From Bacteroidales bacterium (lineage in GTDB: Bacteria; Bacteroidota; Bacteroidia; Bacteroidales; JAAYJT01), in NCBI GenBank assembly GCA_012522795.1, contig JAAYJT010000010.1, positions 1 to 37,367 of the forward strand: DNA of 37,367 nt, in the 5' to 3' direction. Positions 124 through 33,938 of the stretch are shown piece by piece; the first letter of the stretch is position 1, and every line of letters begins with the position of its first letter. The translations under genes and the position numbers were made by a program. The notes under the pieces are model-generated. The model made no database searches. It saw only the letters and a program-made list of their open reading frames with translations, and was not told where the DNA came from.

Positions 124-924
124 CTATTTATAACATGAGAAAAGCCAGGGTAACAATCCTTCTTCTTTAAAGACATAATCCCATGCATTATGCCCGACTC
201 CAGGATAAAGTGTAAGGCTGGCATCAGCACCCGCTACTTTGAAAGCTTCAATCATTTTTACTGATAAAACAGGCTTTACCACTGTATCTTCTTCGCCATG
301 GAATGCCCTGATTTTCACATTCCTGATACCGGCATTTATAAAATCCGGATTTCCACCCCCACAAACCGGAAAAGCTGCAGCAAAAATTTCAGGTTTTCGG
401 TAAAGCAATTCAAAAGTTGCCATACCTCCCATTGAAAGTCCTCCTATATAAACACGTTGCAGATCGGTATAGGGTTCGGAAAGATAAGAATCAATAAGCT
501 CCAGCAGACAGCTCATAGGAGGCTTAGCTTCTTCTGTTGGATTGAAATCAAAATTGCGGCTTCCGTCATCATTGGTCGAAAACACCACATTAGCCCAGTA
601 ATTATCAGTTTTACACTGAGGAAAAATAACAATTGCCGGATAGTTTTTACGGTTAAACTCAGAAGCAAAAAACGAACCGCCATGCATAAGCTGTTTTTCA
701 TTATCATCGCCTCGCTCACCGGCACCGTGAAGAAAGAAAATCAAAGGGTATTTTCCGGAAGGATCAAAATCTTCGGGAAACATGACCCGGTACAGGAGGC
801 TGTCCTGTCCGCTGATGAATATTCTTTTTTCGTAGAGGCTGTTATCCTGCCCTAAAACAATAAAGGAACCGGGAAAAGATACCATTGCTGCAAATAAAAC
901 TATTTTTATCAACTTTATTCTCAT
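124..924 (-). CDS. Secreted alpha/beta-hydrolase esterase
   Basis: A 266-residue alpha/beta hydrolase of the dienelactone hydrolase/phospholipase-carboxylesterase kind. Visible are an oxyanion-type FLHGAGERG segment, the nucleophile elbow GLSMGG (Ser164 from this start), a probable acid in HGEEDT (Asp213) and the His in GVGHNAW (His245). The N-terminus (basic MRIKLIK followed by a hydrophobic run to VLGQ) is a signal peptide, so it should act in the periplasm or outside. The frame stays open to a GTG at 975 that overlaps the stop of the upstream transporter (GTGA), with another ATG at 936. I prefer the ATG at 924 because it gives a normal short signal peptide, but a coupled GTG start is possible. 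It is the last gene of the operon. In this setting removal of acyl substituents from the glycan is a reasonable guess; the substrate cannot be read from the sequence. Confidence 0.85.
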   Translation of the reverse strand: MRIKLIKIVLFAAMVSFPGSFIVLGQDNSLYEKRIFISGQDSLLYRVMFPEDFDPSGKYPLIFFLHGAGERGDDNEKQLMHGGSFFASEFNRKNYPAIVIFPQCKTDNYWANVVFSTNDDGSRNFDFNPTEEAKPPMSCLLELIDSYLSEPYTDLQRVYIGGLSMGGMATFELLYRKPEIFAAAFPVCGGGNPDFINAGIRNVKIRAFHGEEDTVVKPVLSVKMIEAFKVAGADASLTLYPGVGHNAWDYVFKEEGLLPWLFSCYK

Positions 925-971
925 AAAACTGAACATCAAAAATTTAAATTTCAAAACACTCACTTGTATTC

Positions 972-2411
972 TCACCCTGCATGATCCATTGATATTTGTT
1001 CAAGGGTTCTGCCTTTGGTTTCGGTAACATGTTTTTTAACGACCCAGAATGCTATCAGCCCGAAAGCTGCATAAATCCCGTATGACATACCCAAACCAAT
1101 AGATGTCAACAGAATAGGGAATGATATGGTTATCAAAAAATTAGAGCCCCACTGAACTAATCCTGCTACAGCAAGGGCTGCACCCCTGAATTTGTTTGGG
1201 AACATTTCGCCAAGCATGACCCACATAACGGGACCCCAGGTGAAGGCAAAAAATGCAATATAAGCATTGGCGGCCAGTAAAGCCATAATGCCCGTCTTAC
1301 CTGTCAATTCGAGACCTGCAGCACTGTCTTTTGAGCCGTAAGCAAATATGAGAGCCAGTATACCAAGCATAAGTGCCTGCCCCAAAGCTCCGATAAGTAG
1401 TAAAGGTTTTCGTCCAACGCGGTCAACAAGAGCTATCGCAACGAAAGTAAACAGCACATTTACCGAACCGCTTATAACATTGGTAAGCAAAGCATCGGCT
1501 TCAGTGAAACCAGCTGCCTGCCATAAAACTGAGCCATAGTAAAACACAACATTAATACCCGTAAATTGCTGCAAAGCAGCCAATGCCATTCCTACCCAGA
1601 CGATAGTATAAATTTTTCCGGAACCAGGATTTATTATATCAGAAAGCTGGGATTTACGCTCTCCTATAACTGTTTTTCTTATGGATTCAACTTGTAGATT
1701 TGCTGTTTTTATTTCAGTAAGTTTTGCAAGGATATTACGAGCCTTTTCATGTTTCCCGATTGCAACAAGATAGCGTGGTGATTCAGGAATAAGAAAAAGG
1801 AACAGGAAAAACAGCGATGCCGGTAAAACTTCTATCCAGAACATCCATTGCCATGCTTTGTAACCCCACCAGAAAGTTTCAGCAGCTCCGCCGGCACCAA
1901 GAGCAATATTGTAATTGGAGAAAAAAGCCATGAACAAACCCAGAACTATTGCAAGCTGCTGTAATGATATAAGCCTTCCCCTGATATGAGGAGGTGCAAT
2001 TTCGCCAATATATGCCGGCGATATTATACTTGCTGCTCCAACGGCAAGTCCTCCAAGTATCCTGTAGATAACAAATTCGGTGGAGCTGGAAGCAATTCCT
2101 GAACCCCAGGCGCTAATAATAAAAAATATTGCAGCTATCAGCAAGGTTTTCTTTCTACCAATTTTATCTGCCATATTTCCAGCAAAAAAAGCACCAACAG
2201 CGCATCCAAGTAGCATAGATGCAATATTGAAACCTGTGCCTACTACATCGGAATTGAATGCTTCCTGCAATGCATGAACAGTGCCGTTAATGACACCACT
2301 ATCAAAACCGAAAAGAAACCCTCCAGTAGCAGCAACAACAGTCAATGCTAATATCCTGATATGATTGATATTTCCGGATTGATTATTTGCGATCTTGTCT
2401 GTATTCATCAT
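972..2411 (-). CDS. Sugar-porter family MFS transporter (XylE/GLUT-like)
   Basis: A 479-residue, roughly 12-helix carrier of the major facilitator superfamily, sugar porter (SP) family. Hallmarks visible in order are GFLFGFDSGVI in helix 1, the DKIGRKK loop, RILGGLAVG, PESPRYL at the end of helix 6, QQFTGINVVFYYG in helix 7, DRVGRKP, and the C-terminal TETKGRTLEQI. These are the signatures of XylE/GLUT-type proton-sugar symporters, normally for monosaccharides such as glucose or xylose. It sits 73 bases after the GH3 beta-glucosidase. It therefore most likely takes up glucose released in the periplasm by that enzyme, complementing the GPH-type carrier further up the operon. Two consecutive ATG codons (2411 and 2408) offer starts; the first is used here. 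Its stop overlaps the alternative GTG start of the esterase gene. Confidence 0.93.
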   Translation of the reverse strand: MMNTDKIANNQSGNINHIRILALTVVAATGGFLFGFDSGVINGTVHALQEAFNSDVVGTGFNIASMLLGCAVGAFFAGNMADKIGRKKTLLIAAIFFIISAWGSGIASSSTEFVIYRILGGLAVGAASIISPAYIGEIAPPHIRGRLISLQQLAIVLGLFMAFFSNYNIALGAGGAAETFWWGYKAWQWMFWIEVLPASLFFLFLFLIPESPRYLVAIGKHEKARNILAKLTEIKTANLQVESIRKTVIGERKSQLSDIINPGSGKIYTIVWVGMALAALQQFTGINVVFYYGSVLWQAAGFTEADALLTNVISGSVNVLFTFVAIALVDRVGRKPLLLIGALGQALMLGILALIFAYGSKDSAAGLELTGKTGIMALLAANAYIAFFAFTWGPVMWVMLGEMFPNKFRGAALAVAGLVQWGSNFLITISFPILLTSIGLGMSYGIYAAFGLIAFWVVKKHVTETKGRTLEQISMDHAG

Positions 2412-2484
2412 GAAAAATTAATTCGGGTTATAGTGACGTGAATTTGAAGAGTTCAAAAGTAATAATTCTATAATTGTAACCGGA

Positions 2485-4782
2485 TTATTGTAATAAAAAA
2501 GAAGCAGTGAGTACATCTCTGGAATTACCTCCTGTCATTATCAGAAATTCACCCGGTTCATAATCATACTCAAGATCATAATTATAGAATTTAAGGTCTT
2601 CAGTAGTTAATGTAAAAGATACTTTCTGCGATTCACCGGCTTTAAGAAATACTTTTTTGAACCCTTTAAGCTCTTTCACAGGGCGGGTAATACTTCCAAC
2701 AACATCGCGAATGTATAGCTGCACAACTTCAGCACCATTATAATTACCGGTATTGCTTAGCGTAACCTGAACATTTAACCTGTCACCCTCAGTAAGTATT
2801 TGTTTATCCAGTTTTAGTCCGGAATATTCAAATTCAGTGTAGCTCAGCCCATATCCAAATGGATATAAAGGTTCGTTTGGAATGTCGAGATAATTTGACA
2901 GGTATTTAGTGTACCACTCACCTTCCGGTAGTGGACGACCTGTGTTTTTATGACTGTAATAAACAGGAATCTGCCCTACATTTCGCGGAAAGCTAACCGG
3001 CAGTTTGCCTGAGGGACTCACATTGCCAAAAATCACATCGGCAACTGCATTTCCGGTTTGTGTACCTCCAAACCAGACGTTCAGAATAGCAGGAATATTT
3101 TCATCTTCCCATGTCAGTGATAAAGGTCGTCCTGTGAAAAGAACCAAAACTACTGGTTTTCCGGTTTTCAGTAGTGCTTTCAGCAATTGCTGCTGATTTC
3201 CGGGCAAGGAGATATCGGAACGACTAGCGCTTTCTCCGCTCATCTCAGCAGCTTCTCCCATTACTGCTATCACTACATCGGAATTCTGTGCTGCCTTTAT
3301 TGCTTCATCAAGCAGTTCTTCAGGAGTTTCCAGTTTATCAGCATCCAAACCTCCGTGTGCTGTAATACGCCGGATATATTCAGGGTCATCTATAATATTA
3401 CAGCCTTTTGCATAAATGATCTCTGCCCGGTCTGAAACAGCATCTCTGAATCCTTTGAGCACAGTAACCGATTGCGAATGATCTGCTGAAACGCTCCACA
3501 TACCTGCCATGTTCATCTTATTATCAGCCAGAGGTCCAATAAGAGCGATTTTTCCTTTTTTCTGCAATGGCAACAAATAATCCTGATTTTTCAGCAAGAC
3601 AAAAGTCTGAGCGGCAATATCGCGGGCTATTTCATTGTTCTTTTCTGTAAAAATCTCTTTTTCAATTCTTTCAGGTTCGCAATACAGATAAGGATCCTTA
3701 AAAAGGCCAAGCTTATATTTAGCTTCCAGAATTCTGCGGCATGATCGTTCAATCATTGATTCAGTGATTTTTCGCTGCTCAAATGATTTTCCCAGCGTAG
3801 AGATATAGCCTTCGCCAATCATATCCATATCAACGCCTGCATTTAAAGCCAATGCAGAAACTGTCTGCAAATCGCCAACACCATGATTGACCATTTCGTT
3901 AATGGCTGTATAATCAGTAACCACGAAACCTTTAAAATCCCACTGATCCCGCAACACTTCCGTAAGCAGCCATTTATTTCCTGATGCCGGAATACCATCA
4001 ACCTCGTTAAATGAAGTCATAACACTTCCTGCACCTGCTCTGATAGCAGCCAGAAAAGGAGGAAAATACTCATTGAACATGCGAATACGGCTCATATCAG
4101 TGGTGTTGTAATCATGTCCTCCCTCAGCGGCTCCATATAATGCAAAATGTTTTACACAAGCCATGATAGTATGAGAATCAGCAAGGTTATCTCCCTGATA
4201 TCCACGAACAAAGGCTTCCGCAATTCTGGAAACCAGAAAGGGATCTTCACCCCCACCTTCAGCTATCCTACCCCATCGCGGGTCACGGGTAATATCAACC
4301 ATAGGCGAGAAATTCCAGCATATGCCATCGGCACTTGCTTCAATAGCTGCAATTCGTGCACTTTGCTCAATAAGTTCCATATCAAAACTACTTGCCAGCG
4401 CCAAAGGAATAGGGAAAATTGTTTTATATCCATGAATGACATCCATTCCAAATATCAAAGGGATCCCGAGCCGACTTTCATTTACCGCCACTTCCTGCAA
4501 AGTCCGGATTTTTTCAAGCGATTTCACGTTAAGTAAGGCTCCTACCCTGCCCTCCTTTATATTTTTTCCAATCTCAGATGCTGTAACCTGCCCTGTAATA
4601 ATGTCTTCATAGCCTGCAAGCAGATTCAGTTGCCCGATTTTTTCCTCAATTGTCATTTTCTGCATCAGGCTAGTAATAAAAGCATCCATTTCCTTATCGG
4701 AAGTTTGCTTCACTGAATTATTGCACGAGATCAGCAAAGCAGCAAAAAACAATGTCAACAAAAAAGGCTGAAATATTCTCAT
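2485..4782 (-). CDS. GH3 beta-glucosidase lipoprotein (BglX-like)
   Basis: A 765-residue glycoside hydrolase family 3 enzyme that removes terminal beta-linked glucose. A lipoprotein signal ends in LLISC (Cys20). The N-terminal (beta/alpha)8 domain contains the KHFALYGAAEGG substrate-binding segment (about 211-222) and the nucleophile Asp290 in GFVVTDY. The second domain carries GESASRSD with a candidate acid/base Glu. The C-terminal part (about 660-760) is the fibronectin III-like domain usual for BglX proteins, and the full length is normal. The residues after Cys20 (NNSVKQ) are not acidic, so I expect it to face the periplasm rather than the cell surface. Some GH3 enzymes from Bacteroides and Listeria prefer sophorose and longer beta-1,2-gluco-oligosaccharides; given the GH144 and GH94 neighbours that is the likely substrate here. 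Spacing to the upstream SGNH gene is 8 bases, so cotranscription is clear. Confidence 0.93.
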   Translation of the reverse strand: MRIFQPFLLTLFFAALLISCNNSVKQTSDKEMDAFITSLMQKMTIEEKIGQLNLLAGYEDIITGQVTASEIGKNIKEGRVGALLNVKSLEKIRTLQEVAVNESRLGIPLIFGMDVIHGYKTIFPIPLALASSFDMELIEQSARIAAIEASADGICWNFSPMVDITRDPRWGRIAEGGGEDPFLVSRIAEAFVRGYQGDNLADSHTIMACVKHFALYGAAEGGHDYNTTDMSRIRMFNEYFPPFLAAIRAGAGSVMTSFNEVDGIPASGNKWLLTEVLRDQWDFKGFVVTDYTAINEMVNHGVGDLQTVSALALNAGVDMDMIGEGYISTLGKSFEQRKITESMIERSCRRILEAKYKLGLFKDPYLYCEPERIEKEIFTEKNNEIARDIAAQTFVLLKNQDYLLPLQKKGKIALIGPLADNKMNMAGMWSVSADHSQSVTVLKGFRDAVSDRAEIIYAKGCNIIDDPEYIRRITAHGGLDADKLETPEELLDEAIKAAQNSDVVIAVMGEAAEMSGESASRSDISLPGNQQQLLKALLKTGKPVVLVLFTGRPLSLTWEDENIPAILNVWFGGTQTGNAVADVIFGNVSPSGKLPVSFPRNVGQIPVYYSHKNTGRPLPEGEWYTKYLSNYLDIPNEPLYPFGYGLSYTEFEYSGLKLDKQILTEGDRLNVQVTLSNTGNYNGAEVVQLYIRDVVGSITRPVKELKGFKKVFLKAGESQKVSFTLTTEDLKFYNYDLEYDYEPGEFLIMTGGNSRDVLTASFLLQ

Positions 4783-4790
4783 ATAACAGG

Positions 4791-5465
4791 CTATTTTATC
4801 AGTTTGTCTTCAAGAGCTTTTTTCCAGATATCATATCCTTTTTCATTCATATGAAGCATGTCTTCAAGAAATAATGAGGGATCAGGATTACCGTTGCTAT
4901 CGAGCATTGAATCCCAGATGTCAATATAAATAAGACTTTGCTCTTCATCAATAAATCTCTGTATCCTCCTGTTGGCTTCATAAAACCGTTCTGCAAGATG
5001 CCATCTGTCAGGACTTGGTTTCATTGAAACATAAAGCACCGACACATCGGGCAATTCAGAGCGTATTATCTTGTACAGGGTAAGAAATCGTTCAAATACT
5101 TCGTCAGTAGTCAACTGGTCGTCAAATGCAAGATCATTTTCACCACAATAGATAACAATTTGTCGTGGCAGATACGGGAAAACAACATCACCGGCAAAAT
5201 ATATCTGGTCGCTTAGGGTTGAACCACCGAAAGCACGGTTGATTATATCAATATCCGGAAAATACTTTTCCAGGTCAGTCCATATCGTAAATGAAGAACT
5301 GCCGATAAACAAAACTGATCCGGGTTTAGGAGGATTTGTTTTGTCAATTTCCCTGAATTCACGTATTGCATTAGCAAAATGATGTTCGTTTTCCTGAGCA
5401 AGAACAGGAAAATGAAATGCAAGAAATAAAATGAAAGCTATTAATCTGTTGTATTTCATACTCAT
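4791..5465 (-). CDS. Secreted SGNH/GDSL-type hydrolase
   Basis: A 224-residue SGNH hydrolase. Signal peptide about 1-23 (ends PVLAQ). The four SGNH blocks are visible: block I FIGSSSFTIW (Ser57 as nucleophile), block II Gly in RAFGGST (about 80), block III GEND (Asn110), and block V DMLHMNEKGY with the Asp/His pair. The family includes carbohydrate O-deacetylases and other ester hydrolases; the exact ester cannot be told from sequence. The gene is tightly packed between the GH94 (4-base gap) and GH3 (8-base gap) genes, which ties it to the same glycan. Removing acetyl or succinyl groups from substituted beta-1,2-glucans would fit. A second ATG six bases downstream (5459) is an equally good start. 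Confidence 0.88.
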   Translation of the reverse strand: MSMKYNRLIAFILFLAFHFPVLAQENEHHFANAIREFREIDKTNPPKPGSVLFIGSSSFTIWTDLEKYFPDIDIINRAFGGSTLSDQIYFAGDVVFPYLPRQIVIYCGENDLAFDDQLTTDEVFERFLTLYKIIRSELPDVSVLYVSMKPSPDRWHLAERFYEANRRIQRFIDEEQSLIYIDIWDSMLDSNGNPDPSLFLEDMLHMNEKGYDIWKKALEDKLIK

Positions 5466-5469
5466 AGGA

Positions 5470-8400
5470 TTATATATTGATTTCTATCATATTTTCATTT
5501 TTATCAAGAAAACCTAAGAGATAAGTTTTCTCGATCACTGAGCCTCCTTCACGGTACTCATTCTTTTCTCTTAGGAATTGAAGCTCGTTTCCGTTAACTA
5601 TGATTTTTTTCGGGCTATAACACCTGTTCCTAACTCTGTAAATAATTCTGACCTTTTTACCCAACAAATCAAATGATACTATTAATCCATCCATTGCCAA
5701 AGGCAAAACAGGGTCAAAAACAATTCTCTCAGATTCAACCCTTAAGCCAAGCAAATGTTGGATGATCAAACCAGTGTATATGCCCGGACCACTTGAATAA
5801 ACCCTCCATCCCCCTTTTAGTGTGACCCTGCATTTAGCGATCTTCTTATACAACTTGTCAGCTTCGTAACGATTACTGAATGCAACGTCAGAACTGCTGT
5901 AATAACAATTTGATTGGCGTAAATCACCACAAGGCACAACTTCACTGTATTCAATAGGTATAACCTGACGAAGAGCCTTGATAAACTCATCAGCTTTTCC
6001 TGTAACAGCAAGTGATTCGGCATAGCGAACATGCTCGTGCATATACATCAGACCTATTTCACGACCAAAAAATACACTGCTCTCAGCCCTTTGAAAAATA
6101 TTTTGTATTCCTCCCCTGTATTTTAGAGGGCGATCCATTAAACGGGCACCGTCAGGTCCTTTCAAATGCTTTTCAATTATCTGCTGATGATATTCTGCTT
6201 GTTTTTTAGTGAACAGTCCGCTTATTATACCTCTGTTCATTGGTAAAATACTGTATTTTATTCCTGTGACCCTGTCCGAAGGATGAAGCAAGAGGCTGAT
6301 TCTGCCATTTTTACCAATAAGACCATAACCGGCAACAACAGAATCTTTTATCAGGAACCTGTTAAAATCAGTTTTTATATTCCTGCAAATTTTTCTCAGT
6401 CGCTTCGCATCATTTTTCCTGCCAGCCATATCACAAACCTCTGCGTATTCATTAAATGCCTGATAATTCATTTCCACTGTCCAGGAGGATATCATACGGT
6501 CAGCAAGTTCCTGACTTACAGGTTGTAATGAATCATTCCAATCACCACCTCCAAATGGCACAAAATAAGTATCCGGTATAAATGAATCTGTGATCATGTT
6601 AATCAACCTGTCAACATGTTCATATAGCGGTGTTTGTTCTTTGTTACCTTTACCATCATTGCGATAATAAGGCAAAACTTCATCGAGGATATTACGGTCG
6701 CCTGTAATTTTTATATATCTGCTCAAAGCAATGATACACCAGTAGATAATATCTCCGTGAGCATGGTCGGAACGGATATTTTTATACCTGTCAAACATCC
6801 ACCACTGTGGCCAGCCTCCATCAGGGTTCTGATTTGAGAAGATGATACAAAGTATTTTCCTGGTTTCTGAATATTTACCCATACTTAGTAACAAATCTAT
6901 TGGTCCCTGGGCAACATCACGGGTACCCCACGCTGCGCCACTAAATTGTTCCAATCCGTATGGGGTCAGATAATGTATCAATGCATTCATGCCAAACCAG
7001 GGCAGAATTTCATTTATTGCCGATATATCGTGATGTGGGCTTTGAAGAGAAAGATTCTGACTGAGATTTTTCCATATTTCCAAAGCATTATTCTTATCTT
7101 TAACAAATTGTGCATCAGAATCCTCAAACTTTTCAAATTCCGCTTTTTTCTCAACTTCACCAAGAAAGCTCATTGAAAACTCTCTTGCTTTCGCAATATC
7201 AAGAACAAAAAATGAAGCACAACGACTTTGATGATCGCTATATAGTATTTCATCGCCTGCTACATGGTAATCTGACGAACCATTGATCCTTATCCTGAAT
7301 TGAGCATCAGGAAACTTTTCTGAAATCAGGCTTTTCTGAAAGGGCTTACATATTAATTCATGTTCAGCATCGCCACTTAAAGCAGTCCAGTTAATAACCC
7401 TGTCAAACTGATTGGTAATCAATATTTTCACTGGCTCACCCTTAAGCACTTTAAAGTCCAGATTCACCTGCGGAGCAGTCTTTGAAGTCCAGATCCGAAC
7501 CTGAAAAGCAGAATCCTTATACTTGTAAATCCATCTGCAATGGTTCAAACCGGTTTCAAAAGCAGAAGGTACACCCAGCAGGTAATATTTGCTGTTTAGT
7601 TCAAGAAATATCCTTTGACCCGTTTCCGGATCCTGATTAAACTGACTTGAACATACTGAGAGAAGGGTGTTAAAATTGGTGTTGCCCTGAGTTAGATGTG
7701 AATTGAAAGCGCCAAAAGCAAATGAAGTGGTTGAAACAATGCTTTCATCAGGTTCATAACCAGATTTTGCCTGTATAATATGTCCATGAGAACGATCGCA
7801 CAGAATTTCTTTAAGGCGGAAAGCAACGTGATTATTTTCTCCATAAAAAAATGAAAGCAGTTTGCCATCCTTATATTCAGCATGGCGGTAATCAGTGCCA
7901 AAAAAGGTTTCCAGCTCTTCATTAGTCAGGTCTTCACCAGAAAGTAATCCGGAACTGGTAAATATGCTACTGACAGGATTTTTCAGTCCTTGTGAATAAT
8001 AAATTGATCCGGCTTCATTAAATTCATTGATCAGTTCAGGTAGCAGACTCAGATCAGTGTTTGAAGTTGCCAAAGGATGGTCATGAAGATATTTACAAAC
8101 AAAAACACTGCAATGACTTTCATTGGATTCAATCCTGAAAGGCTGTTCCTGCAATGCAACAACCGATGATTCTCCGGCATATTCACCATTGGGGCTTTCT
8201 GAAGCCAGGGCTTCCGGAATAAAGGTTTCGCGAAAAGTTTTACCATAAAACAACATACCATCAGTCAGGGCTGAAGCAGCGCAATTTTTACACGCAAGCA
8301 TCATCCATGGATTCCCGCTTGCTTCCTTCATATTCTGGCGGCAACAAATTACCTTTCCATAAATAGGGTCTTCAAGAATTCTCCTTTCAATATACTGGCT

Positions 8401-11247: not shown

Positions 11248-11274
11248 ATTGTTGTTTATTCATCATATCGCAAA

Positions 11275-13065: not shown

Positions 13066-13081
13066 AAATGAAGTTTTTTGC

Positions 13082-16261: not shown

Positions 16262-16291
16262 GAAGATCAATATTTTGTATTTCCAATTTAT

Positions 16292-17680: not shown

Positions 17681-17765
17681 ATTATTAACAAGGTTTTGAA
17701 ATGGTTTATTCTTATTCTTACAAATCATTATAATCATTTTACTTATTTCTTAATTCAGAAAAACA

Positions 17766-19745
17766 TCAATTTGAAAAGCCAAGTTTTATCATTGCCTGCT
17801 GAACTTCGGGTGCCGACATAAAAAGGTTCCAGCATAAAGCACTGCGATAATTCTCAATCATTATTATAACAGGTCCCTGATCAATTGCAATATAGGAACT
17901 AGCCCACCAGCCTTCATGTGGATTAAAAGCATCGTAAAAGCCATAAGGACCCCATAACTTATCACCCAAAATGTAATAAAAATGCCTAAGAGCCTGCATT
18001 GATTCTTCTGGGGTGAAAGGCATGGACGAAAGCGCAGCCGAAGGAGTAATAGTACCATTGTCTCTTGTTGGTTCGTGAACCTTATAGCCGGCAGGATCAT
18101 CGCTTGCTGTCAGCCCCCAGCAATCAGCACTGTAACCTGTATAGTTCTTCTGGTTCACAATACAATGCTGCCTGTTAATCAATGTATGACTTACATTCTG
18201 AACCCAGTAATTGGCATATTGATCAATGAGATTTATAGGATTTAAACCCAGGAAAGAATATTGAGCAAAGAAAAGAGGTCCTCCATAATCAAACCCGAGT
18301 GGCAACTGAATACCATAGAACGACTTACCATTAACAAAAAATGAAGAACCAGCCCATCCCTTATGGTAAACCTGAGCATCAATTGGAAATGTCTCAGAAG
18401 AGGCAGCCATGAAATAGGTTATCAGTGCTTCGTTATATCCTTTGATCTGCATATTTATATCCCAGCCATAATCTGGCGACCAGTGCCAGTAAAGCACATT
18501 TTGTCCGCCACGTGTATACCATGACCATTCAATGGTATTAAGCAGATTATTTATACTGGATATAAGAGCTTCTTCTGAATCATCATTGGGGTTCAGATAT
18601 TGCCTCACAGTGATCAGTCCAGCAGCAAGAAATGAGGTCTCAACAAGGTCGCCACCATTATCCTTAGTGCTGAACGGAATTATTTTTCCTGTTGATCCAT
18701 TTAGCCAATGAGGCCAGACACCATGAAAACGATCAGCAAAGGTTAAAAAATCAATAATTTTATTCAATCTTTCTATTCCCTGCCTCCTTGTTATAAAATT
18801 TCGTTCAATTCCGATAAGAATTGACATTAATCCAAAACCACTACCTCCAATAGTGACTGTTTCACCTGAAGAATTGCGTTCGCGAGCCAAACCACTGACG
18901 GGATGAGCAAAATCCCAAAAATATCTGAAGGTTTGCTGCTGAACCAGGGTTAACAATTCTTCATCACTTAACTGAGGCATTTTAACTGAGGGGTTCAGAC
19001 CGGTATAAAAATATATAAGGAAACCTTTAAATGAGAAGCCATTTTCCGCAACAAGATCAGGTGATATATGAAAAGAGTATTTTGAGTAATAATCCAGGTC
19101 TTCATTGTTTGTTATGGTAACTGTTGTGCCATCGGCTGACAGAGCTGCATCGAAATTCAAAGGAGGATAAAATGAAAAAGCATTCTTATATTGCTTAGGA
19201 TCAAGGCTATGAGAAAAATTAATTATAAGTTCAATACTGTTGTATGAAATATTTCTTAAATGCATATTCGAACTCAAAGCCAAACCATTAAGTGTGGCTG
19301 CAAGCAGTTTCAAAATTCCGGGTTCAGTTTTAAATTCATATTTTACTCCTGGGAAGTTTTCTTTTTTCGAACCTTTAAGCTCCCAGGTTATTTCAAGCAA
19401 ATAATCTGATTCATTAATTAATGGATTTGAGGGGGTTAAAATAATGGTTTTATTGTCGTCTGTATACTCAAATTCACAAGAAACCTTTTCATTATTCTGA
19501 ACACTGATAAGATAAATATTTTTTTTCGCGGAAGTGGTGTCAACAGCATTGGTAAATTCAATAAAAAATGAACTGTTAACGGGAATATCAGAGATCAATT
19601 GGGTATTTGATAAAATTATATCATCAGCTTTGACCCTGATCAGTTGTAATGTTTGCGCCGGATTGTCATTTTTGCCATTACACGACACCAATGCAATCAC
19701 AATCCAGCTTAACAGGTAAACTATATAACTGATCCCTGACTTCAT
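17766..19745 (-). CDS. GH144-type (PF10091) glucanase lipoprotein with two Ig-like domains
   Basis: A 659-residue lipoprotein (lipobox ALVSC, Cys22). Two Ig-like domains of the bacterial Big_5/SbsA type (about 35-143 and 148-250) precede a PF10091/GH144 toroid (about 258-655). Catalytic-domain landmarks are LIGIERNF, GVWPHWLNG, NGGDLVETSFLAAG (around Asp366), IKGYNEALITY (Glu439, presumed acid), YSADCWGLTASDDP, LSSMPFTPE and GFYDAFNPHEGWW. Family knowledge makes it an endo-beta-1,2-glucanase candidate. The Ig-like spacer after the lipid anchor is the arrangement used by surface enzymes that must reach away from the membrane, so this paralogue probably makes the first cuts and the shorter one (16292-17680) works inside. 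The gene starts right after the T-tract of a hairpin that separates it from the LamG gene, so its dose relative to susCD may be set by partial termination. Ends and start are clear. Confidence 0.88.
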   Translation of the reverse strand: MKSGISYIVYLLSWIVIALVSCNGKNDNPAQTLQLIRVKADDIILSNTQLISDIPVNSSFFIEFTNAVDTTSAKKNIYLISVQNNEKVSCEFEYTDDNKTIILTPSNPLINESDYLLEITWELKGSKKENFPGVKYEFKTEPGILKLLAATLNGLALSSNMHLRNISYNSIELIINFSHSLDPKQYKNAFSFYPPLNFDAALSADGTTVTITNNEDLDYYSKYSFHISPDLVAENGFSFKGFLIYFYTGLNPSVKMPQLSDEELLTLVQQQTFRYFWDFAHPVSGLARERNSSGETVTIGGSGFGLMSILIGIERNFITRRQGIERLNKIIDFLTFADRFHGVWPHWLNGSTGKIIPFSTKDNGGDLVETSFLAAGLITVRQYLNPNDDSEEALISSINNLLNTIEWSWYTRGGQNVLYWHWSPDYGWDINMQIKGYNEALITYFMAASSETFPIDAQVYHKGWAGSSFFVNGKSFYGIQLPLGFDYGGPLFFAQYSFLGLNPINLIDQYANYWVQNVSHTLINRQHCIVNQKNYTGYSADCWGLTASDDPAGYKVHEPTRDNGTITPSAALSSMPFTPEESMQALRHFYYILGDKLWGPYGFYDAFNPHEGWWASSYIAIDQGPVIIMIENYRSALCWNLFMSAPEVQQAMIKLGFSN

Positions 19746-19753
19746 AAACGCAT

Positions 19754-19789
19754 AAAAAAAGAAAGGAGAGGGGAATTAACCCGCTCTCC
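19754..19789 (-). terminator. Intrinsic terminator or attenuator inside the operon
   Basis: On the minus strand a GC-rich hairpin is followed by a run of T. The outer stem is GGAGAG/CTCTCC at 65-70 and 84-89 of block 19700, the inner GGG/CCC has one bulged base, and the loop is AATTAA. The T-run is TTTCTTTTTTT, reaching 19754. It follows the LamG lipoprotein stop by 26 bases and ends 8 bases before the GH144 start codon. No promoter-like TAnnTTTG lies between, so downstream genes probably depend on read-through. Structure seen; effect inferred. Confidence 0.75.
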
Positions 19790-19815
19790 TCCCCATTATT
19801 AACCAAAAACAAAAA

Positions 19816-21054
19816 TTAGGGTTTTTCTGACTCGTACATGAGGTCAATCTCTTTAGGTGTAAGAACTTTATGATAGATACGAATATCATCTAACTGACCT
19901 TTAAAATGGTTAGCCTCCGGGAAGTTATAACCGCCCCATGGTTCATTAGCCCACATTGTACCCTGGCGTGACTGAATAAATCCAAATGCAAGCTCGTTTA
20001 CAACATCAGGAGCAACACCTCCGTATTTCATACCTTTTACGGTACGTTTGGCATCACCATCAGGCCACAGATTAAAGTCGAAGCTCTTCATTTTCTCGCC
20101 ATTATAATACAAGATTCCACGTTTGCTTTCACCATCAAAAGTATATGTAATATGCAACCATTTGTCTTTCAGCATAGCTATCATGTCGTCAGGCTCAATA
20201 GATTTAGCAAAATCCCAGCCCTGAAAACCACCATTGCCATTATATTCAGCATTGCTTGGGAACCACATATCTTCTGCAGTAGTAGTACCATCTTCAAGTT
20301 CATATTGGATGGCGAATTTTGCACCATCAAAACCTCCGAACATTTCAAACTGAATACCATAAAATGCACCTAATCCCAGTACAAAATGTCCCTTTCCTGA
20401 GTCTTCAGCCTTAACCCAGAAAGAAATAGTAAATTTCTGTGTATTAACAAGCTGATCGCCATTGGGAACTTCAATGATACTTGTAGTACCATTAAATGCT
20501 GCAGCTTTTCCGGCATTAGCATTACGTGAATCAACATAGGTAATATCTATTGCAGCCGATGAGTTAAAAGCTCCGGTTTCGTCCTTACCATCGTTTTCAA
20601 ATTTCCAATGTGCTTTAACACCTGCAGGAGCAAAAGTTCCGATAGTAGTGAAGTTACGTTCAAATGCAGTTAGATATTTATCTGCCGTAGATTTCAATCC
20701 GGCTTTGAATATTAATAGGTATATGGCACCGGTACTCAAATCCACCTCTGGTTTAATGGTAATAGTCTTTCCTGAAACTGTTATATTCAGCGGAATATCA
20801 GTACCATCGTAATCCTGGGTAAGAGCAATGTTTGCGGCAATAGCAGTGGCAGGGTCAATATCAGTGCTAAATGTAGCAACGATAGTAGGATTTACAGGCA
20901 CATCATCCGGTGAAGTTGCCGCATTCAGATCTATGGTGCCGGCAACGAGAGTTGCAAGTGTAAGATCGGGGTCATCTTTCTTACATGAGCTTATAGCTAT
21001 TGTAAGAGCTAAAACTACGAGCCCAAGGCTCAAAAAAACATGATTACGTTTCAT
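19816..21054 (-). CDS. Surface LamG-domain lipoprotein, likely glycan-binding (SGBP)
   Basis: A 412-residue lipoprotein, third gene after susC and susD, the usual position of a surface glycan-binding protein. Lipobox AISSC (Cys24) is followed by KKDDPD, an acidic stretch of the kind that directs Bacteroidota lipoproteins to the outer surface. Residues about 45-138 form a Big_5/SbsA Ig-like domain (VPVNPTIVATFSTDIDP). Residues about 147-405 form a LamG/concanavalin A-like jelly roll (AHWKFENDGKDETG, FTISFWVKAED, FKGQLDDIRIYHKVLTPKEI). There is no obvious catalytic glutamate pair of GH16, so binding rather than hydrolysis is the better reading. The same Ig-like domain type occurs in the adjacent GH144 lipoprotein. 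Ligand specificity for beta-1,2-glucan is inferred from context only. Confidence 0.85.
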   Translation of the reverse strand: MKRNHVFLSLGLVVLALTIAISSCKKDDPDLTLATLVAGTIDLNAATSPDDVPVNPTIVATFSTDIDPATAIAANIALTQDYDGTDIPLNITVSGKTITIKPEVDLSTGAIYLLIFKAGLKSTADKYLTAFERNFTTIGTFAPAGVKAHWKFENDGKDETGAFNSSAAIDITYVDSRNANAGKAAAFNGTTSIIEVPNGDQLVNTQKFTISFWVKAEDSGKGHFVLGLGAFYGIQFEMFGGFDGAKFAIQYELEDGTTTAEDMWFPSNAEYNGNGGFQGWDFAKSIEPDDMIAMLKDKWLHITYTFDGESKRGILYYNGEKMKSFDFNLWPDGDAKRTVKGMKYGGVAPDVVNELAFGFIQSRQGTMWANEPWGGYNFPEANHFKGQLDDIRIYHKVLTPKEIDLMYESEKP

Positions 21055-21080
21055 AATTACAAAATTTAATTAAAAAAATA

Positions 21081-22577
21081 TTAAAAACTCCAATTTGGGT
21101 TCTGAGTTAAAGTTCCCTGCGATATATCTATTTCATTCTGAGGTATTGGAAGCAATTCGTGTTTGTCTTGAACAAATCCAAACGGTCCTAGTAACTGAGG
21201 AGCCTTACCGGTTCTGATAAGATCCCAGAAACGATGACCTTCAAGTGCAAGCTCTACACGACGTTCATGAAGTATCAAATCGCGTAATTGATTTTTATCA
21301 GTTGTTTTAACGTCAGGTAATATAGCATTATTGCCATGCCTTGCCCTAGCACGAACCCTGTTAAGATGCACCAGAGCCTGTGACGGCTTTCCATTTTCAT
21401 TCAAAACCTCAGCAGCCATCAGTAACACATCTGCAAAGCGGATCAGGCGGCGGTTATGACCAAACTGGGTATTGGTGGAAGTTCCAGGAATCCAGACTTT
21501 TCTGTTATAACATTCCACTTCAACGAGGTTTCCGTCTTCATCAAATGTTTGGTCAGGTGTAGTACCATCCCCTAAAATCAATACACCATCAATGACATCA
21601 CCAAGATCAATTATTGTTAATTTAAGGCGGGGATCACCTTCTTCAAAAGTTGCACGCAAATCAAGTGACGGGCGGTTAAAACCCCATCCACGGTTAGGGG
21701 TTCCACGAACACCCTGAGTATTGGCATACTGATTTCCGACAGCTCCAGAGCTTTCCATAGCACCAATCTCAAAAACTGATTCAACGCCATGTTCTCCGTT
21801 TTTACCATTAGCATCTTCGAAATCAGATTCAAGGTCATACTGATTTGAAAGGATTATTTCAAGTAAATATTTTTCTGCATTAACAAAATCATTTTTACCT
21901 GCATCATGGCGAAACATATAAACTTTAGACAATAATGCTTTTGCAGCCCCTTTTGTTGCCCTGCCAAGATCGGTAGCAGAGTATTCATTTTTTTCCGGAA
22001 GGTTTTCAATGGCAAACAACAAATCCTTTTCAATCAACTCGTAAACCTCATTAATCGAAGCACGTGGAAGTTTAAGTGGCGGCGAAGTAGTCTCCACTAT
22101 TGGCACACCACCGAATGCTCTTAGAAGATCAAAATAATACAGACCGCGTAAGAATTTAGCTTCACCGATATAGCGGTTCTTAAGTGTAGTGTTCATTCCA
22201 ATATCCGGAACCTTTTCAATAACTACATTGGCACGCTTAATACCCTGATACAATGATGCCCACCAACGATCAAGACCATCCTGAGTGGGTACATGGGTGA
22301 AATTGTCATAAGGTCCTAAAGTATTTAATTGATCAGCAGGGTTACTTCCTTTATGAGAATCGTCAGACATTATATCCAGAATAGGGTATCCGCCTGAATG
22401 ATAATGCCAGTTTCTTAGTGTGGAATAAGCAGCATTGGTAGCAAGAAGAGCATCAGCCGAATTAATAGGGAAACTTTCCTGTGTAAGCTGACCCTGAGGA
22501 CTAACTTCAAGAAAATCTTCACAAGCTGAAAACAATATGATACTGCTGAAAACTAAAATATAATATATTTTTTTCAT
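21081..22577 (-). CDS. susD: SusD/RagB family glycan-binding lipoprotein
   Basis: A 498-residue RagB/SusD protein, the substrate-binding lid of a SusCD outer-membrane importer. Lipoprotein signal with Cys19 in LFSAC, followed by EDFLEVSPQGQLT, which is the classic start of mature SusD proteins. The tetratricopeptide-like core includes EAKFLRGLYYFDLLRAFGG and a C-terminal half with RLIRFADVLLMAAEVLNENG and ERRVELALEGHRFWDLIRTG, all standard family signatures. It lies 12 bases downstream of susC and 26 bases upstream of the LamG lipoprotein gene, so the three are translated from one mRNA. The protein sits on the cell surface and closes over the SusC barrel. The glycan it recognises is inferred (beta-1,2-gluco-oligosaccharide) from the enzymes encoded downstream. 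Confidence 0.96.
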   Translation of the reverse strand: MKKIYYILVFSSIILFSACEDFLEVSPQGQLTQESFPINSADALLATNAAYSTLRNWHYHSGGYPILDIMSDDSHKGSNPADQLNTLGPYDNFTHVPTQDGLDRWWASLYQGIKRANVVIEKVPDIGMNTTLKNRYIGEAKFLRGLYYFDLLRAFGGVPIVETTSPPLKLPRASINEVYELIEKDLLFAIENLPEKNEYSATDLGRATKGAAKALLSKVYMFRHDAGKNDFVNAEKYLLEIILSNQYDLESDFEDANGKNGEHGVESVFEIGAMESSGAVGNQYANTQGVRGTPNRGWGFNRPSLDLRATFEEGDPRLKLTIIDLGDVIDGVLILGDGTTPDQTFDEDGNLVEVECYNRKVWIPGTSTNTQFGHNRRLIRFADVLLMAAEVLNENGKPSQALVHLNRVRARARHGNNAILPDVKTTDKNQLRDLILHERRVELALEGHRFWDLIRTGKAPQLLGPFGFVQDKHELLPIPQNEIDISQGTLTQNPNWSF

Positions 22578-22589
22578 AATCGCGAATTT

Positions 22590-25500
22590 TTAAAATGTAA
22601 TATTCAAACCAAAGGAGTAAACTGCCGAAATGGGATAAATTCCATTATCAATACCGTTTGACAATACATCATAACTGCCTATTTCAGGAGTATAGCCAGT
22701 GTATTTGGTAAATGTAAACATATTTGTCCCTTTTAGATAAACCCTAACCTGCTGCATAGTAAGCTTCTTAGAAACATTTGCCGGAAGCGTATATCCTATA
22801 ATTAATGTACGCATTCTGATAAAAGAACCATTTTGAATAAACCTGTCAGAAGGTGTATAATTATATCCTCCGAACGAAGCTCTGGGTTCTGTATTTGATG
22901 TTTCAGGACCAGTCCAGCGGTTCCAGACACTTTTTTCAAAATTATAAGGATCTGGTCTGACAGCATCCTTACCATTAAAGATCTTATTTCCGGTTTGTCC
23001 ATGAATATCCATTGAAAGATCAAAAGCTTTATAAGCAAACTCAAAGTTCAATCCAAAAATAAATTTAGGAATCGGCGATCCGATGAAAGTTCTGTCAAGT
23101 CCGGTAATTCGCTTATCTCCGTCAACATCCACAAAGCGCAGGTCACCAACCTCAGCCAGTGATGAATGTGGATAGGCATTTAGTTCATCCTGATTCTGGA
23201 AAATACCATCAGTAATATAACCATAAAAAGCTCCGATTGGCAGTCCAATTCTGCTTAATGTAATCGGTTGTCCGTTAGCAAGATAACCACCTATCAACAC
23301 TGAATCTACACCACTTGATCCTCCTATTTCAAGGACTTCGTTATGAATAGTAGTTCCGAGCAACCCCACGCTATAACTAAAATCTCTGATTTTCTCGCGC
23401 CAGCGGATATTAAACTCAAAACCACTGTTAAGAATCGAAGCTGCATTATAACGAACACGTTGCCCCTGCCCGTTACCAATATGCCCGGGAGTGGATAACT
23501 CTACAAGAATATCATCGGTTACTCTGCGATAATAGTCAAATTCTCCAGTTAGTTTGTTGTTCAGAACCCCAGCTTCAAGTCCTATATCGGTTTGGGTAGT
23601 ACTTTCCCATTTCAAATCCGGATTTCCGCTTTTGAAATAACTCGCTGCTGGAAAAGAAGCATCCGGATTTGACAAGATCACAAGAAGATCGGACTGAACT
23701 CTTGCAAAGCGATCGAAATACAATATTTTCTCATTACCTATTATCCCCCAGCTTGCCCTAAGCTTCAGGTTCGAAATTAAGGGAATCTTCTGCATAAACT
23801 GCTCATTTACAATATTCCATCCCAGAGCAAAAGAAGGAAAGTTTGAAAACCGGTTTTCTTTGCTGAATTTTGATGATCCGTCACGGCGAAAAGTAATAGT
23901 ACCAATATAACGATTGTCGAAAGTATAATTAGCTCTGAACAGATACGATATCATTGAATAATAGAGATTGGCGTCAACACCGTTAAAAATGCTTTGTAAC
24001 ATATTGATGTTATTTGATTCATCAATAATGTAAGGTGGTTCAATATACCAAAAATTCTCATTATCGCGTATCACATTTTGTCCTGCAAAGCTAATCTCTT
24101 CCGAGCGAGTTCTCTGCATAGTAAAACCTGCAACAGCATTTATGTTATGTTTATCAATACGCTTATCCCACGAAGCTGTGTTTTCCCACAACCAGCTCAT
24201 ATTCTCAGTATTACCTTTTGAAATATCGCTAAATTCATTGTATTGCTGCGAAGCTGTACCATCAGGGTTATAAACAGTATAAGCAGGTGTAAAAGCTTTA
24301 AACTTATTAAATGAAGCATCAATACCAAAACTTGATTTCAGGGTAATGTCTTCAAGTGGGTTAGCTTCTGCAAAAATATTTCCTACACCCCTGATGCCAC
24401 TGCGGAAATTATTGGAGTATGCCAGATCAGCAAGAGGATTACCAACATTATAAACAACACCAAAGCTTCCATCTTCATAATAAGGCTTTAGCAAAGGTTG
24501 TGCACGATAAACTGAGTATGTGACATTTGGTGCATTTCGCTGTTCGTAAGGTGCCAAAGTAATATTATTACCTAGCTTGAAGTACTTCGATAAATTATAA
24601 GTGTTATTGAGTTTCAATGTTATACGTTGATAATTTGATTTTGGTACTATACCATCCTGCTGATATAATCCTATTCCCACGTAATATTGCGAAACATTGG
24701 TAGCACCGGTTATTGACAACTGATGATTCTGCACAGGGGCTGTTCTGAATACAAGGTTCTGCCAGTCGGTATTAGGAACAGCATCTACATTATTGTATGA
24801 ACCGGGTCGGATTTCATTTGAGATGATTGCAAATTCACGTCCGTTGAGCAGATCTATCTTTTTAGCAAGCTTTTGAATGCCATATTCGCTTGAAAAAGCA
24901 AAAACCGGCTTCTCCTGCCCAACCGAACCTGTTTTTGTTTGTATGAGAATAACACCATTAGCACCCCGTGAGCCGTAAATCGCAGTTGCTGACGCATCTT
25001 TCAATACTTCCATAGATGCTATATCTGCTGAATTTAAAAATGATATATCATCGAGGATAACACCATCAACAACAAATATTGGTAAGGAATTATTGAATGT
25101 TCCAACCCCCCTGATTCTCACTGCTACACCTGATCCAGGAGCCCCTGATGTTGTTGTTACCTGAACACCGGTTACTTTTCCCTGCAAGGCTTTTTCCGGA
25201 TGTATAGCAGTGATTTTACCTATATCTTCAGATTTAAGAGAACTGACAGCACCGGTCAAATCACTTTTCCTTACTGTTCCATATCCAATAACCACAATTT
25301 CTTCAAGAGTGGTGCTACTTAGCTGTAATACAATACTAAAGTTTTGCTGGGTTCCAATAATTATTTCCTGATCCTGATATCCGATAAATGAAAATACTAA
25401 TGTTCGGTCATCAGGCTGGATTTCCATCTTAAAATTACCATCAATATCAGTTGTAGTTCCCCTGTTAGTACCTTTTATCCAAACATTAACTCCCGGTAAA

Positions 25501-25643
25501 GTTTCACCATTATCTGAAGCAGTAACCTTCCCGGAAATAACCTTTTGGGCAAATACACCAACAGCCGAAAGAAACAAAAACAGCATCAATGGTATTAAAC
25601 GTCGGAAAATTTGGTTTGTAAAATTGTTTATTTTCATAAGCAT
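22590..25643 (-). CDS. susC: SusC/RagA TonB-dependent outer-membrane importer
   Basis: A 1017-residue TonB-dependent receptor. Signal peptide about 1-33 (ends VGVFAQ). A carboxypeptidase-regulatory-like domain (about 34-115: ISGKVTASDNGETLPGVNV) is followed by the SusC-type motif LEEIVVIGYGTVRKSDLTG. The plug comes next (GVQVTTTSGAPGSGVAVRIR, IYGSRGANGVILI), then a long 22-strand barrel ending in the aromatic terminal residue (LNITF). No N-terminal extension for anti-sigma contact (STN domain) is present, so it does not look like a sigma/anti-sigma transducer. It is the first gene of the operon, with a well-matched Bacteroidota promoter about 100 bases upstream. ATG at 25643 or 25637 may be used. 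It imports oligosaccharides across the outer membrane with SusD; substrate inferred from context. Confidence 0.96.
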   Translation of the reverse strand: MLMKINNFTNQIFRRLIPLMLFLFLSAVGVFAQKVISGKVTASDNGETLPGVNVWIKGTNRGTTTDIDGNFKMEIQPDDRTLVFSFIGYQDQEIIIGTQQNFSIVLQLSSTTLEEIVVIGYGTVRKSDLTGAVSSLKSEDIGKITAIHPEKALQGKVTGVQVTTTSGAPGSGVAVRIRGVGTFNNSLPIFVVDGVILDDISFLNSADIASMEVLKDASATAIYGSRGANGVILIQTKTGSVGQEKPVFAFSSEYGIQKLAKKIDLLNGREFAIISNEIRPGSYNNVDAVPNTDWQNLVFRTAPVQNHQLSITGATNVSQYYVGIGLYQQDGIVPKSNYQRITLKLNNTYNLSKYFKLGNNITLAPYEQRNAPNVTYSVYRAQPLLKPYYEDGSFGVVYNVGNPLADLAYSNNFRSGIRGVGNIFAEANPLEDITLKSSFGIDASFNKFKAFTPAYTVYNPDGTASQQYNEFSDISKGNTENMSWLWENTASWDKRIDKHNINAVAGFTMQRTRSEEISFAGQNVIRDNENFWYIEPPYIIDESNNINMLQSIFNGVDANLYYSMISYLFRANYTFDNRYIGTITFRRDGSSKFSKENRFSNFPSFALGWNIVNEQFMQKIPLISNLKLRASWGIIGNEKILYFDRFARVQSDLLVILSNPDASFPAASYFKSGNPDLKWESTTQTDIGLEAGVLNNKLTGEFDYYRRVTDDILVELSTPGHIGNGQGQRVRYNAASILNSGFEFNIRWREKIRDFSYSVGLLGTTIHNEVLEIGGSSGVDSVLIGGYLANGQPITLSRIGLPIGAFYGYITDGIFQNQDELNAYPHSSLAEVGDLRFVDVDGDKRITGLDRTFIGSPIPKFIFGLNFEFAYKAFDLSMDIHGQTGNKIFNGKDAVRPDPYNFEKSVWNRWTGPETSNTEPRASFGGYNYTPSDRFIQNGSFIRMRTLIIGYTLPANVSKKLTMQQVRVYLKGTNMFTFTKYTGYTPEIGSYDVLSNGIDNGIYPISAVYSFGLNITF

Positions 25644-25745: not shown

Positions 25746-25776
25746 CAAAATTAAGATTATTATAAGCTGAAAGCAA
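25746..25776 (-). promoter_or_regulatory. Promoter of the susC operon (Bacteroidota sigma-ABfr type)
   Basis: On the minus strand a TTG (-33 element, 25776-25774) is followed after 20 bases by TAATTTTG (-7 element, 25753-25746). This matches the known consensus TTG-N19/21-TAnnTTTG. The start site would be near 25739, leaving a leader of roughly 95 bases before the susC ATG. The leader shows no Shine-Dalgarno sequence, as usual in this phylum. Confidence 0.7.
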
Positions 25777-29063: not shown

Positions 29064-29107
29064 TTGAAAACAAATCAAAGTCAAATAATTACCGATAATT
29101 TCAGTAC

Positions 29108-29989: not shown

Positions 29990-30007
29990 TAAAACAGACA
30001 GGTAGAA

Positions 30008-32022: not shown

Positions 32023-32118
32023 ATTAAATAAAATTTAATTTTGAACGATTTGATATTGATTTTGAATTAATAAAAGTACACTGACTAATAAAAAGTAGGA
32101 TTGACAGACTAAGAAAAA

Positions 32119-33822: not shown

Positions 33823-33825
33823 AAA

Positions 33826-33897: not shown

Positions 33898-33938
33898 AAT
33901 AATAAAAAGAAGAGAAAACAGTTTCTATCAGTACATAA

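What the first reader, a model, noticed from the sequence alone, without database searches (positions are those of the whole stretch)
124..25643. A 13-gene locus apparently dedicated to beta-1,2-glucan use
One uninterrupted minus-strand operon combines SusCD, a LamG lipoprotein, two PF10091/GH144-type enzymes, a toroid protein of unassigned family, GPH and SP carriers, GH35, an approximately 1110-residue GH94, SGNH, GH3 and an esterase. GH144 plus long GH94 plus GH3 is the known enzyme set for beta-1,2-glucans. The added GH35, toroid protein, two carriers and two esterases make it much fuller than the known phosphorylase and beta-glucosidase clusters. Cyclic or substituted beta-1,2-glucans from proteobacterial periplasms would be a natural food source.
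Basis: partly seen in the sequence, partly recalled or inferred. Interest (0 to 1): 0.85.

Follow-up and report, generated by a model that had tools for sequence, protein, structure and literature searches.

The report
Beta-1,2-glucan feeding operon with new enzyme
This is a 13-gene bacterial operon for eating beta-1,2-glucans (sugar polymers made by other bacteria); most of its parts match known enzymes, but it contains one uncharacterised enzyme, related to alpha-glucosidases, that is almost always found next to beta-1,2-glucanases and may cut the single alpha link that closes some of these rings.

Summary
In detail: 13 genes on the minus strand, at the stated coordinates, gaps -4 to 73 bp. 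The beta-1,2-glucan reading is well supported. The GH94 is nearest to a 1,2-beta-oligoglucan phosphorylase. The GH35 keeps all 16 compared residues of the beta-1,2-glucosyltransferase IaSGT. The two PF10091 proteins are GH144, one of the CpSGL and one of the XcSGL type, with the clan residues intact. "Much fuller than known clusters" is overstated: GH144 x2 + GH94 + GH35 + transporters is published for Ignavibacterium album, GH144 loci are abundant in Bacteroidota, and operons of the same order occur in many genomes. The new part is the "toroid" (13082-16270). It has 413 relatives in several phyla and no Pfam or NCBIfam family, and it sits near a GH144-type gene in 65 of 66 scan loci and 17 of 17 other toroid-bearing genomes of a separate Bacteroidota sample. 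Profile comparison puts it nearest to GH15 (E 1e-9), with GH15's subsite -1 Arg/Asp and general base matched to invariant residues. An alpha-glucosidase-type enzyme beside a beta-1,2-glucanase suggests it removes the alpha-1,6 link of alpha-1,6-cyclised beta-1,2-glucans. That step is inferred, not shown.

The parts
22590..25643 (-). SusC-like TonB-dependent outer-membrane transporter
   Evidence: Pfam CarbopepD_reg_2 and Plug; 77-79% identical SusC in the same place in related operons
21081..22577 (-). SusD-like surface glycan-binding lipoprotein
   Evidence: Pfam SusD_RagB and SusD-like_3; lipobox FSAC
19816..21054 (-). Big_5 + LamG-type lipoprotein, probable surface glycan-binding protein
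   Evidence: Pfam Laminin_G_3 and Big_5; lipobox ISSC
17766..19745 (-). GH144 lipoprotein of the CpSGL type (endo-beta-1,2-glucanase), Big_5 N-terminus
   Evidence: PF10091 2e-72; PDB 4gl3 3e-166, CpSGL 5gzh 2e-148; D135, D139, E142, E211, F268, Y330, D400 of CpSGL all kept
16292..17737 (-). GH144 lipoprotein of the XcSGL type (endo-beta-1,2-glucanase)
   Evidence: PF10091 1e-69; XcSGL 8xul 2e-103; clan residues E211/F268/Y330 kept, acidic D at the E142 position, groups with XcSGL (support 0.997) apart from CpSGL
13082..16270 (-). Toroid: secreted protein with two N-terminal carbohydrate-binding-like domains, a beta-supersandwich and an (alpha/alpha)6 barrel; GH15-like, unassigned family
   Evidence: F5/8C domain; model pLDDT 89.7; nearest profile GH15; neighbour of GH144
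11275..13065 (-). GPH-family sugar symporter, probable importer of beta-1,2-glucooligosaccharides into the cytoplasm
   Evidence: MFS_2 2e-63; TIGR00792 below its cut-off; conserved between toroid and GH35
8812..11247 (-). GH35 beta-1,2-glucosyltransferase of the IaSGT type, no signal peptide seen
   Evidence: IaSGT 7vkw 6e-159; 16 of 16 catalytic, donor and acceptor residues identical, including R349
5470..8811 (-). [quoted passage not shown]
   Evidence: Pfam SOGP_N, SOGP_2nd, SOGP_4th; 5h3z 4e-168; GGDWND motif at residues 755-760
4791..5465 (-). Secreted SGNH esterase, possible removal of acyl groups
   Evidence: Lipase_GDSL_2 2e-12; SGNH proteins recur in related loci, once fused to GH3
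2485..4782 (-). GH3 beta-glucosidase lipoprotein, BglX-like
   Evidence: Pfam GH3 N and C domains; JMB19063 3u48 and 5xxl ('Periplasmic beta-glucosidase'), both E 0; lipobox LISC. That 5xxl is BT_3567 is from my own knowledge
972..2411 (-). Sugar-porter (SP) family carrier, probable glucose uptake
   Evidence: Sugar_tr 3e-114; TIGR00879 9e-117
124..975 (-). Secreted alpha/beta-hydrolase esterase
   Evidence: Peptidase_S9, DLH and Abhydrolase_2 at 1e-8 to 1e-9; GLSMGG nucleophile elbow in the sequence
25746..25776 (-). Candidate Bacteroidota-type promoter (TTG-N20-TAATTTTG) upstream of susC
   Evidence: Loose pattern, 7 matches in the whole window, so weak

Best explanation
The operon is a beta-1,2-glucan utilisation locus of a Bacteroidales-like bacterium. 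Surface lipoproteins (SusD, LamG) and SusC bind and import glucan. The two GH144 enzymes cut it into beta-1,2-glucooligosaccharides. Esterases may strip acyl groups. Two branches use the products: GH3 releases glucose outside the inner membrane for the SP carrier, while GPH imports oligosaccharides to the cytoplasm, where GH94 phosphorolyses them to glucose-1-phosphate and the GH35 transglucosylase handles sophorose, the limit product. The toroid is an uncharacterised GH15-like hydrolase that works with GH144; most likely it cleaves an alpha-glucosidic link, of which the alpha-1,6 link of alpha-1,6-cyclised beta-1,2-glucans is the only one I know in these polymers. The family assignments were tested here. 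The order of steps, cell compartments and toroid specificity are inferred. The confidence given is for the beta-1,2-glucan locus; for the alpha-link role of the toroid I put about 0.4.
For: GH94: 5h3z far above all other GH94 chains (4e-168 against 1e-10). GH35: IaSGT 6e-159 against 1e-62 for the next type, all 16 residues kept, including R349, which PMC8861115 says many homologues lack. GH144: XcSGL and CpSGL types with clan residues; both types are reported active on beta-1,2-glucan (PMC12102758; CpSGL cited there). Operon conserved. Toroid: PF10091 upstream of it in 65 of 66 loci with more than 6 kb upstream and within about 7 kb in 17 of 17 genomes of a separate draw, while only 105 of 296 genomes have PF10091 at all. 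Toroid profile against GH15 E 1.2e-9, GH133 4e-6, GH94 4e-5, GH65 0.008, GH78 0.03. NCBIfam GH15 model TIGR01577 hits 36 of 37 members, below cut-off. R640, D641, E760, E923 invariant in 40 toroids. GH15 chains align 545-555 residues at 3.7 A.
Against: No activity, induction or localisation was measured. GH3 specificity is not resolved by sequence: the best PDB match is JMB19063, not a characterised beta-1,2 enzyme. Barrel fold alone does not fix linkage: VIA-align rows from GH15, GH65, GH78, GH116, GH94 and GH95 lie within a few Z units, and GH94 and GH116 act on beta-links. The general-acid assignment E760 rests on spacing, not on aligned columns; the loop 760-764 has pLDDT under 50. Toroid and GH144 also travel together in genomes where the diet is unknown.
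Confidence: 0.85

Rival explanations
1. Same locus, but the toroid acts on a beta-link: an exo-acting beta-1,2-glucosidase, or a debranching enzyme for beta-1,6-glucosyl side groups of E. coli-type periplasmic glucans.
For: The related superfamily includes beta-acting GH94 and GH116; toroid profile also matches GH94 SOGP (4e-5); beta-1,2-glucans with beta-1,6-glucose side chains are among the natural forms in PMC11842490; constant GH144 partner.
Against: Nearest profiles are GH15 and then GH133, families known to me only for alpha-glucosides; many of the loci already encode a GH3 or GH1 beta-glucosidase.
Confidence: 0.3
2. The toroid has lost catalysis or serves mainly as a glycan-binding partner for GH144.
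For: It carries CBM32-like and CBM4/11-like domains.
Against: Many barrel residues, including acids D641, D680, E689, D691, E760, D772, D834, D836, E923, D937, are invariant from Bacteroidota to Xanthomonadaceae, which fits an enzyme.
Confidence: 0.08
3. The locus targets a different polysaccharide (for example a galactan, through a GH35 beta-galactosidase).
For: Most characterised GH35 are beta-galactosidases (PMC8861115).
Against: The GH35 keeps every IaSGT residue checked and ordinary beta-galactosidases score far lower; GH94 and GH144 agree on beta-1,2-glucose.
Confidence: 0.04
4. The polymer is a decorated (acylated or sulfated) beta-1,2-glucan, and the toroid or esterases are there for the decoration.
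For: Cyclic glucans often carry succinyl or acetyl groups (PMC11842490); SGNH genes recur in these loci, once fused to GH3.
Against: No sulfatase in the operon; SGNH is missing in the same-genus copy; a GH15-like fold does not suit ester removal.
Confidence: 0.15

Closest known systems
Ignavibacterium album GH144/GH94/GH35 (IaSGT) gene cluster (PMC8861115)
   Same: Two GH144, a GH94 SOGP homologue, GH35 beta-1,2-glucosyltransferase, TonB-dependent and inner-membrane transport; Ignavibacteria relatives also carry the toroid beside GH144 (L017, L023, L030)
   Different: Window uses SusCD, GPH and SP carriers instead of an ABC importer, and has SGNH and an esterase; whether the published cluster holds a toroid could not be read (figure in supplement)
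Bacteroidota GH144 polysaccharide utilisation loci (PMC6499787; B. thetaiotaomicron SGL cluster cited in PMC8861115)
   Same: SusCD, GH144, GH3 beta-glucosidase
   Different: Window adds the toroid and the cytoplasmic GH94/GH35/GPH branch
Listeria innocua SOGP cluster Lin1839-1841 (PMC12369401)
   Same: GH94 SOGP with GH3 beta-glucosidase and oligosaccharide import
   Different: No GH144, GH35, toroid or SusCD reported; ABC importer
XcSGL-type loci of Xanthomonas and relatives (XCC2207, PMC12102758; loci L046-L090)
   Same: XcSGL-type GH144 and toroid in one cluster, TonB receptor
   Different: ABC importer between the two genes, in some a GH1 beta-glucosidase (L046, L058); no GH94/GH35 branch
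GH15 glucoamylase/glucodextranase family (1lf6, 1ug9, 9ju0)
   Same: Supersandwich plus (alpha/alpha)6 barrel; RD motif and general-base Glu in matching positions
   Different: About 13-14% identity; below every GH15 model cut-off; different neighbourhood; own N-terminal CBM-like domains

Membership tests
GH144 (PF10091), XcSGL type: 16292-17737 | PF10091 over cut-off; clan residues E, F, Y (E239, F286, Y367 of XcSGL); acidic residue at CpSGL E142 position | tested here: met
GH144 (PF10091), CpSGL type: 17766-19745 | As above, with CpSGL D135, D139, E142, E211, F268, Y330 | tested here: met
GH144 | Hydrolysis of beta-1,2-glucan | not testable with these tools
   Needs purified protein
[quoted passage not shown] W-N-D general acid | tested here: met
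GH35 beta-1,2-glucosyltransferase (IaSGT) | Y52, E102, N175, E176, N275, E343, Y378 (donor and catalysis), R349 and hydrophobic acceptor pocket | tested here: met
   residues from PMC8861115
GH3 beta-1,2-glucan-preferring beta-glucosidase (BT_3567 type) | Preference for sophoro-oligosaccharides | tested here: inconclusive
   5xxl ties with 3u48 and 5tf0 in the PDB search; specificity residues not compared
Polysaccharide utilisation locus (SusCD type) | SusC/SusD pair beside carbohydrate-active genes in one tight same-strand run | tested here: met
GH15 (toroid) | Pfam PF00723 or NCBIfam TIGR01577 over curated cut-off | tested here: not met
   PF00723 12.1 bits against 22, TIGR01577 25.5 against 820.7
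GH15 (toroid) | Subsite -1 Arg-Asp and general-base Glu in register | tested here: met
   R640-D641 and E923 aligned with GH15 RD and [AS]E motifs; invariant
GH15 (toroid) | General acid in the WExR motif | tested here: inconclusive
   E760 matches by spacing only (163 against 162 residues to the base); W is replaced by H
GH144/SGL clan (toroid as a further beta-1,2-glucanase) | Sequence relation to PF10091 | tested here: inconclusive
   hhalign against GH144a only 0.5% probability, one single-sequence test

The most novel reading that the evidence does not exclude
The toroid founds a new glycoside hydrolase family, distantly related to GH15, that opens or trims the single alpha-1,6 link of alpha-1,6-cyclised beta-1,2-glucans. 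With GH144 it would form the missing degradation pathway for a glucan class that includes a Xanthomonas infection factor, present in Bacteroidota and in the producing genus itself.
Probability: 0.35. Interest if true: 0.75.

Novelty: new variant of a known kind. Interest (0 to 1): 0.55.

Why it matters
Beta-1,2-glucans are symbiosis, virulence and osmoregulation factors, and few enzymes that use them are known. The locus ties a widespread uncharacterised protein family to GH144 across phyla, and its GH15-like active site gives a specific prediction (an alpha-link cutter) that one enzyme assay can test. I found no paper in the held library describing an enzyme dedicated to the alpha-1,6 closure; if confirmed, it would show how such rings are broken down in nature.

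Tried and rejected
A first idea, that GH144a belonged to the Group 4 proteins without known substrate, was dropped after reading PMC12102758: XCC2207 (XcSGL) is GH144 and active; Group 4 is PgSGL4. PDB sequence search with the toroid profile found only its CBM-like domains. VIA-align could not separate families on the barrel: rows tie. Single-sequence hhalign of toroid against one GH15 gave nothing; only the 18-sequence GH15 profile did. Control profiles GH65, GH78, GH133 and GH94 were run so that the GH15 result would not stand alone. No Rfam hits or tRNAs. Phage collection has no toroid. No paper links periplasmic glucans and Bacteroidota loci under the terms tried.
Full report
Observation. 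Pfam confirms SusC, SusD, LamG/Big_5 lipoprotein, two PF10091 proteins, GPH and SP carriers, GH35, GH94 with SOGP domains, SGNH, GH3 and an alpha/beta-hydrolase esterase; the 1062-aa toroid has only an F5/8C domain in Pfam. The window is a whole contig of a 2.88 Mb assembly. A same-genus genome carries the same operon on a longer contig, without the SGNH gene.

Enzyme assignments. The GH94 matches the solved protein 5h3z (4e-168), which I know as the Lachnoclostridium phytofermentans 1,2-beta-oligoglucan phosphorylase (the PDB table names it only 'Uncharacterized protein'), far better than cellobiose or other GH94 phosphorylases, and it has the Pfam SOGP domains. The GH35 matches IaSGT, a beta-1,2-glucosyltransferase (6e-159), against 1e-62 for glucosaminidases and 2e-25 or weaker for most beta-galactosidases. 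All 16 IaSGT residues named in PMC8861115 and compared here are identical in the window protein, and nearly all in 22 related GH35 sequences. PF10091 protein 16292-17737 is of the XcSGL type (8xul) and 17766-19745 of the CpSGL type (5gzh/4gl3). They fall on the two sides of a tree with these references, and the clan residues E, F and Y and the acidic residue at CpSGL E142 are kept (the tree contains some duplicated fragments, so its row counts are not protein counts). PMC12102758 reports XcSGL specific for beta-1,2-glucan. The GH3 is BglX-like, its specificity open. GH94 and GH35 lack a visible signal peptide; GH3, GH144b, LamG and SusD have lipoboxes, and GH144a has one by eye if it starts at a later Met (LLMSC).

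Is it fuller than known clusters? Only in part. PMC8861115 describes an Ignavibacterium album cluster with two GH144, a GH94 SOGP homologue, GH35 and transporters. PMC6499787 lists GH144 loci among the abundant Bacteroidota loci. In one search the order SusC-SusD-LamG-GH144b-GH144a-toroid-GPH-GH35-GH94 recurs across Bacteroidota MAGs.

The toroid. A scan of 84,980 species genomes with a toroid alignment found 413 encoded relatives; the best 80 loci are from Bacteroidota, Ignavibacteria, KSB1, Caldithrix, Gemmatimonadota, Eisenbacteria, Rokubacteria and Proteobacteria, mostly Lysobacteraceae. Of 66 loci with more than 6 kb upstream, 65 have a PF10091 gene there. The Lysobacteraceae loci are closely related, so these are not independent counts. 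In a separate draw of 296 Bacteroidota genomes the toroid is in 18. All 17 other than this one have PF10091 on the same contig within about 7 kb, although only 105 of 296 genomes have PF10091. None of the 17 has the SOGP domain or the GH35. So the toroid belongs with GH144, and GPH/GH35/GH94 is a separable module. In Methylosinus the toroid lies beside a full-length SOGP-like GH94 (36%) without GH144 in view, a second link to beta-1,2-glucan. In Lysobacteraceae and Duganella the order is TonB receptor, GH144, ABC importer, toroid, and in some a GH1 beta-glucosidase.

What the toroid looks like. AlphaFold2 gives pLDDT 89.7: beta-sandwich, CBM32-like domain, beta-supersandwich, (alpha/alpha)6 barrel, C-terminal beta region (domain reading from the secondary structure, Pfam and the fold hits). 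Fold search puts it among many families of this architecture with tied Z; two-domain GH15 chains align 545-555 residues at 3.7 A. Profile-profile comparison with controls ranks GH15 first (E 1.2e-9), then GH133 (4e-6), GH94 (4e-5), GH65 (0.008) and GH78 (0.03); GH15 against GH65, its clan sister, gives only 0.27 with the same sets. These E-values are for single comparisons and small profiles, so only the ranking is used. The alignment places the GH15 'W-x-R-D' (subsite -1) on toroid R640-D641 and the GH15 '[AS]E...GNFPQ' base on E923 '...GDMPH'; E760 fits the general acid by spacing. Which GH15 residues are subsite -1, acid and base is from my own knowledge of the family. All four toroid residues are invariant in 40 toroids. 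NCBIfam's GH15 model TIGR01577 matches 36 of 37 toroids, far below its cut-off. The toroid is therefore GH15-like but not filed as GH15.

Mechanism. GH15 and GH133 enzymes known to me act on alpha-glucosides. In the periplasmic glucans of Ralstonia, Xanthomonas and Cereibacter, beta-1,2-glucan chains are closed by one alpha-1,6 link (PMC11842490, PMC11228985). A beta-1,2-glucanase cut leaves fragments with an internal alpha-1,6 link, which phosphorylase or beta-glucosidase could trim only up to that link. A GH15-like enzyme beside GH144 would solve this. This is inference; a beta-acting toroid is the main rival (about 0.3). The remaining pathway (surface binding, GH144 cutting, import, GH3 plus SP branch, GPH plus GH94 plus GH35 branch) follows from the families and, for the GH35, from PMC8861115.

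Limits. No function was measured. The organism is an uncultured-type assembly of unknown name. CAZy and paper supplements could not be searched, so the toroid may already have a family number there. Only open-licence papers were searched.

Noticed in passing
window 28071-36580 (+): A divergent plus-strand run of MoxR ATPase, DUF58, and by reading the sequence two von Willebrand proteins, a BatD-like and a TPR/SH3 protein, looks like a Bacteroidota aerotolerance (Bat) operon.
   Followed up: no
window 26027-27655 (-): A DUF3843 protein lies just upstream of susC; in the same-genus genome this place holds a large sensor-like regulator instead (L008:942-3854).
   Followed up: partly
L003:12001-14883: The toroid copy on the Xanthomonas sacchari R1 plasmid is frame-broken (three pieces, no annotated gene), while other Xanthomonas copies are intact.
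   Followed up: partly
L031:4418-7303: A GDSL esterase fused to a GH3 beta-glucosidase lies next to the toroid, suggesting deacylation and glucose release are coupled.
   Followed up: no
L005:4454-12427: Methylosinus plasmid pMSC49c carries a GH15 gene, an SOGP-like GH94 annotated hypothetical, and a toroid side by side, without GH144 in view.
   Followed up: partly
L075:15500-17800: A second, 28% identical toroid-like reading on the opposite strand near the first in Luteimonas terrae.
   Followed up: no
[quoted passage not shown]
   Followed up: no
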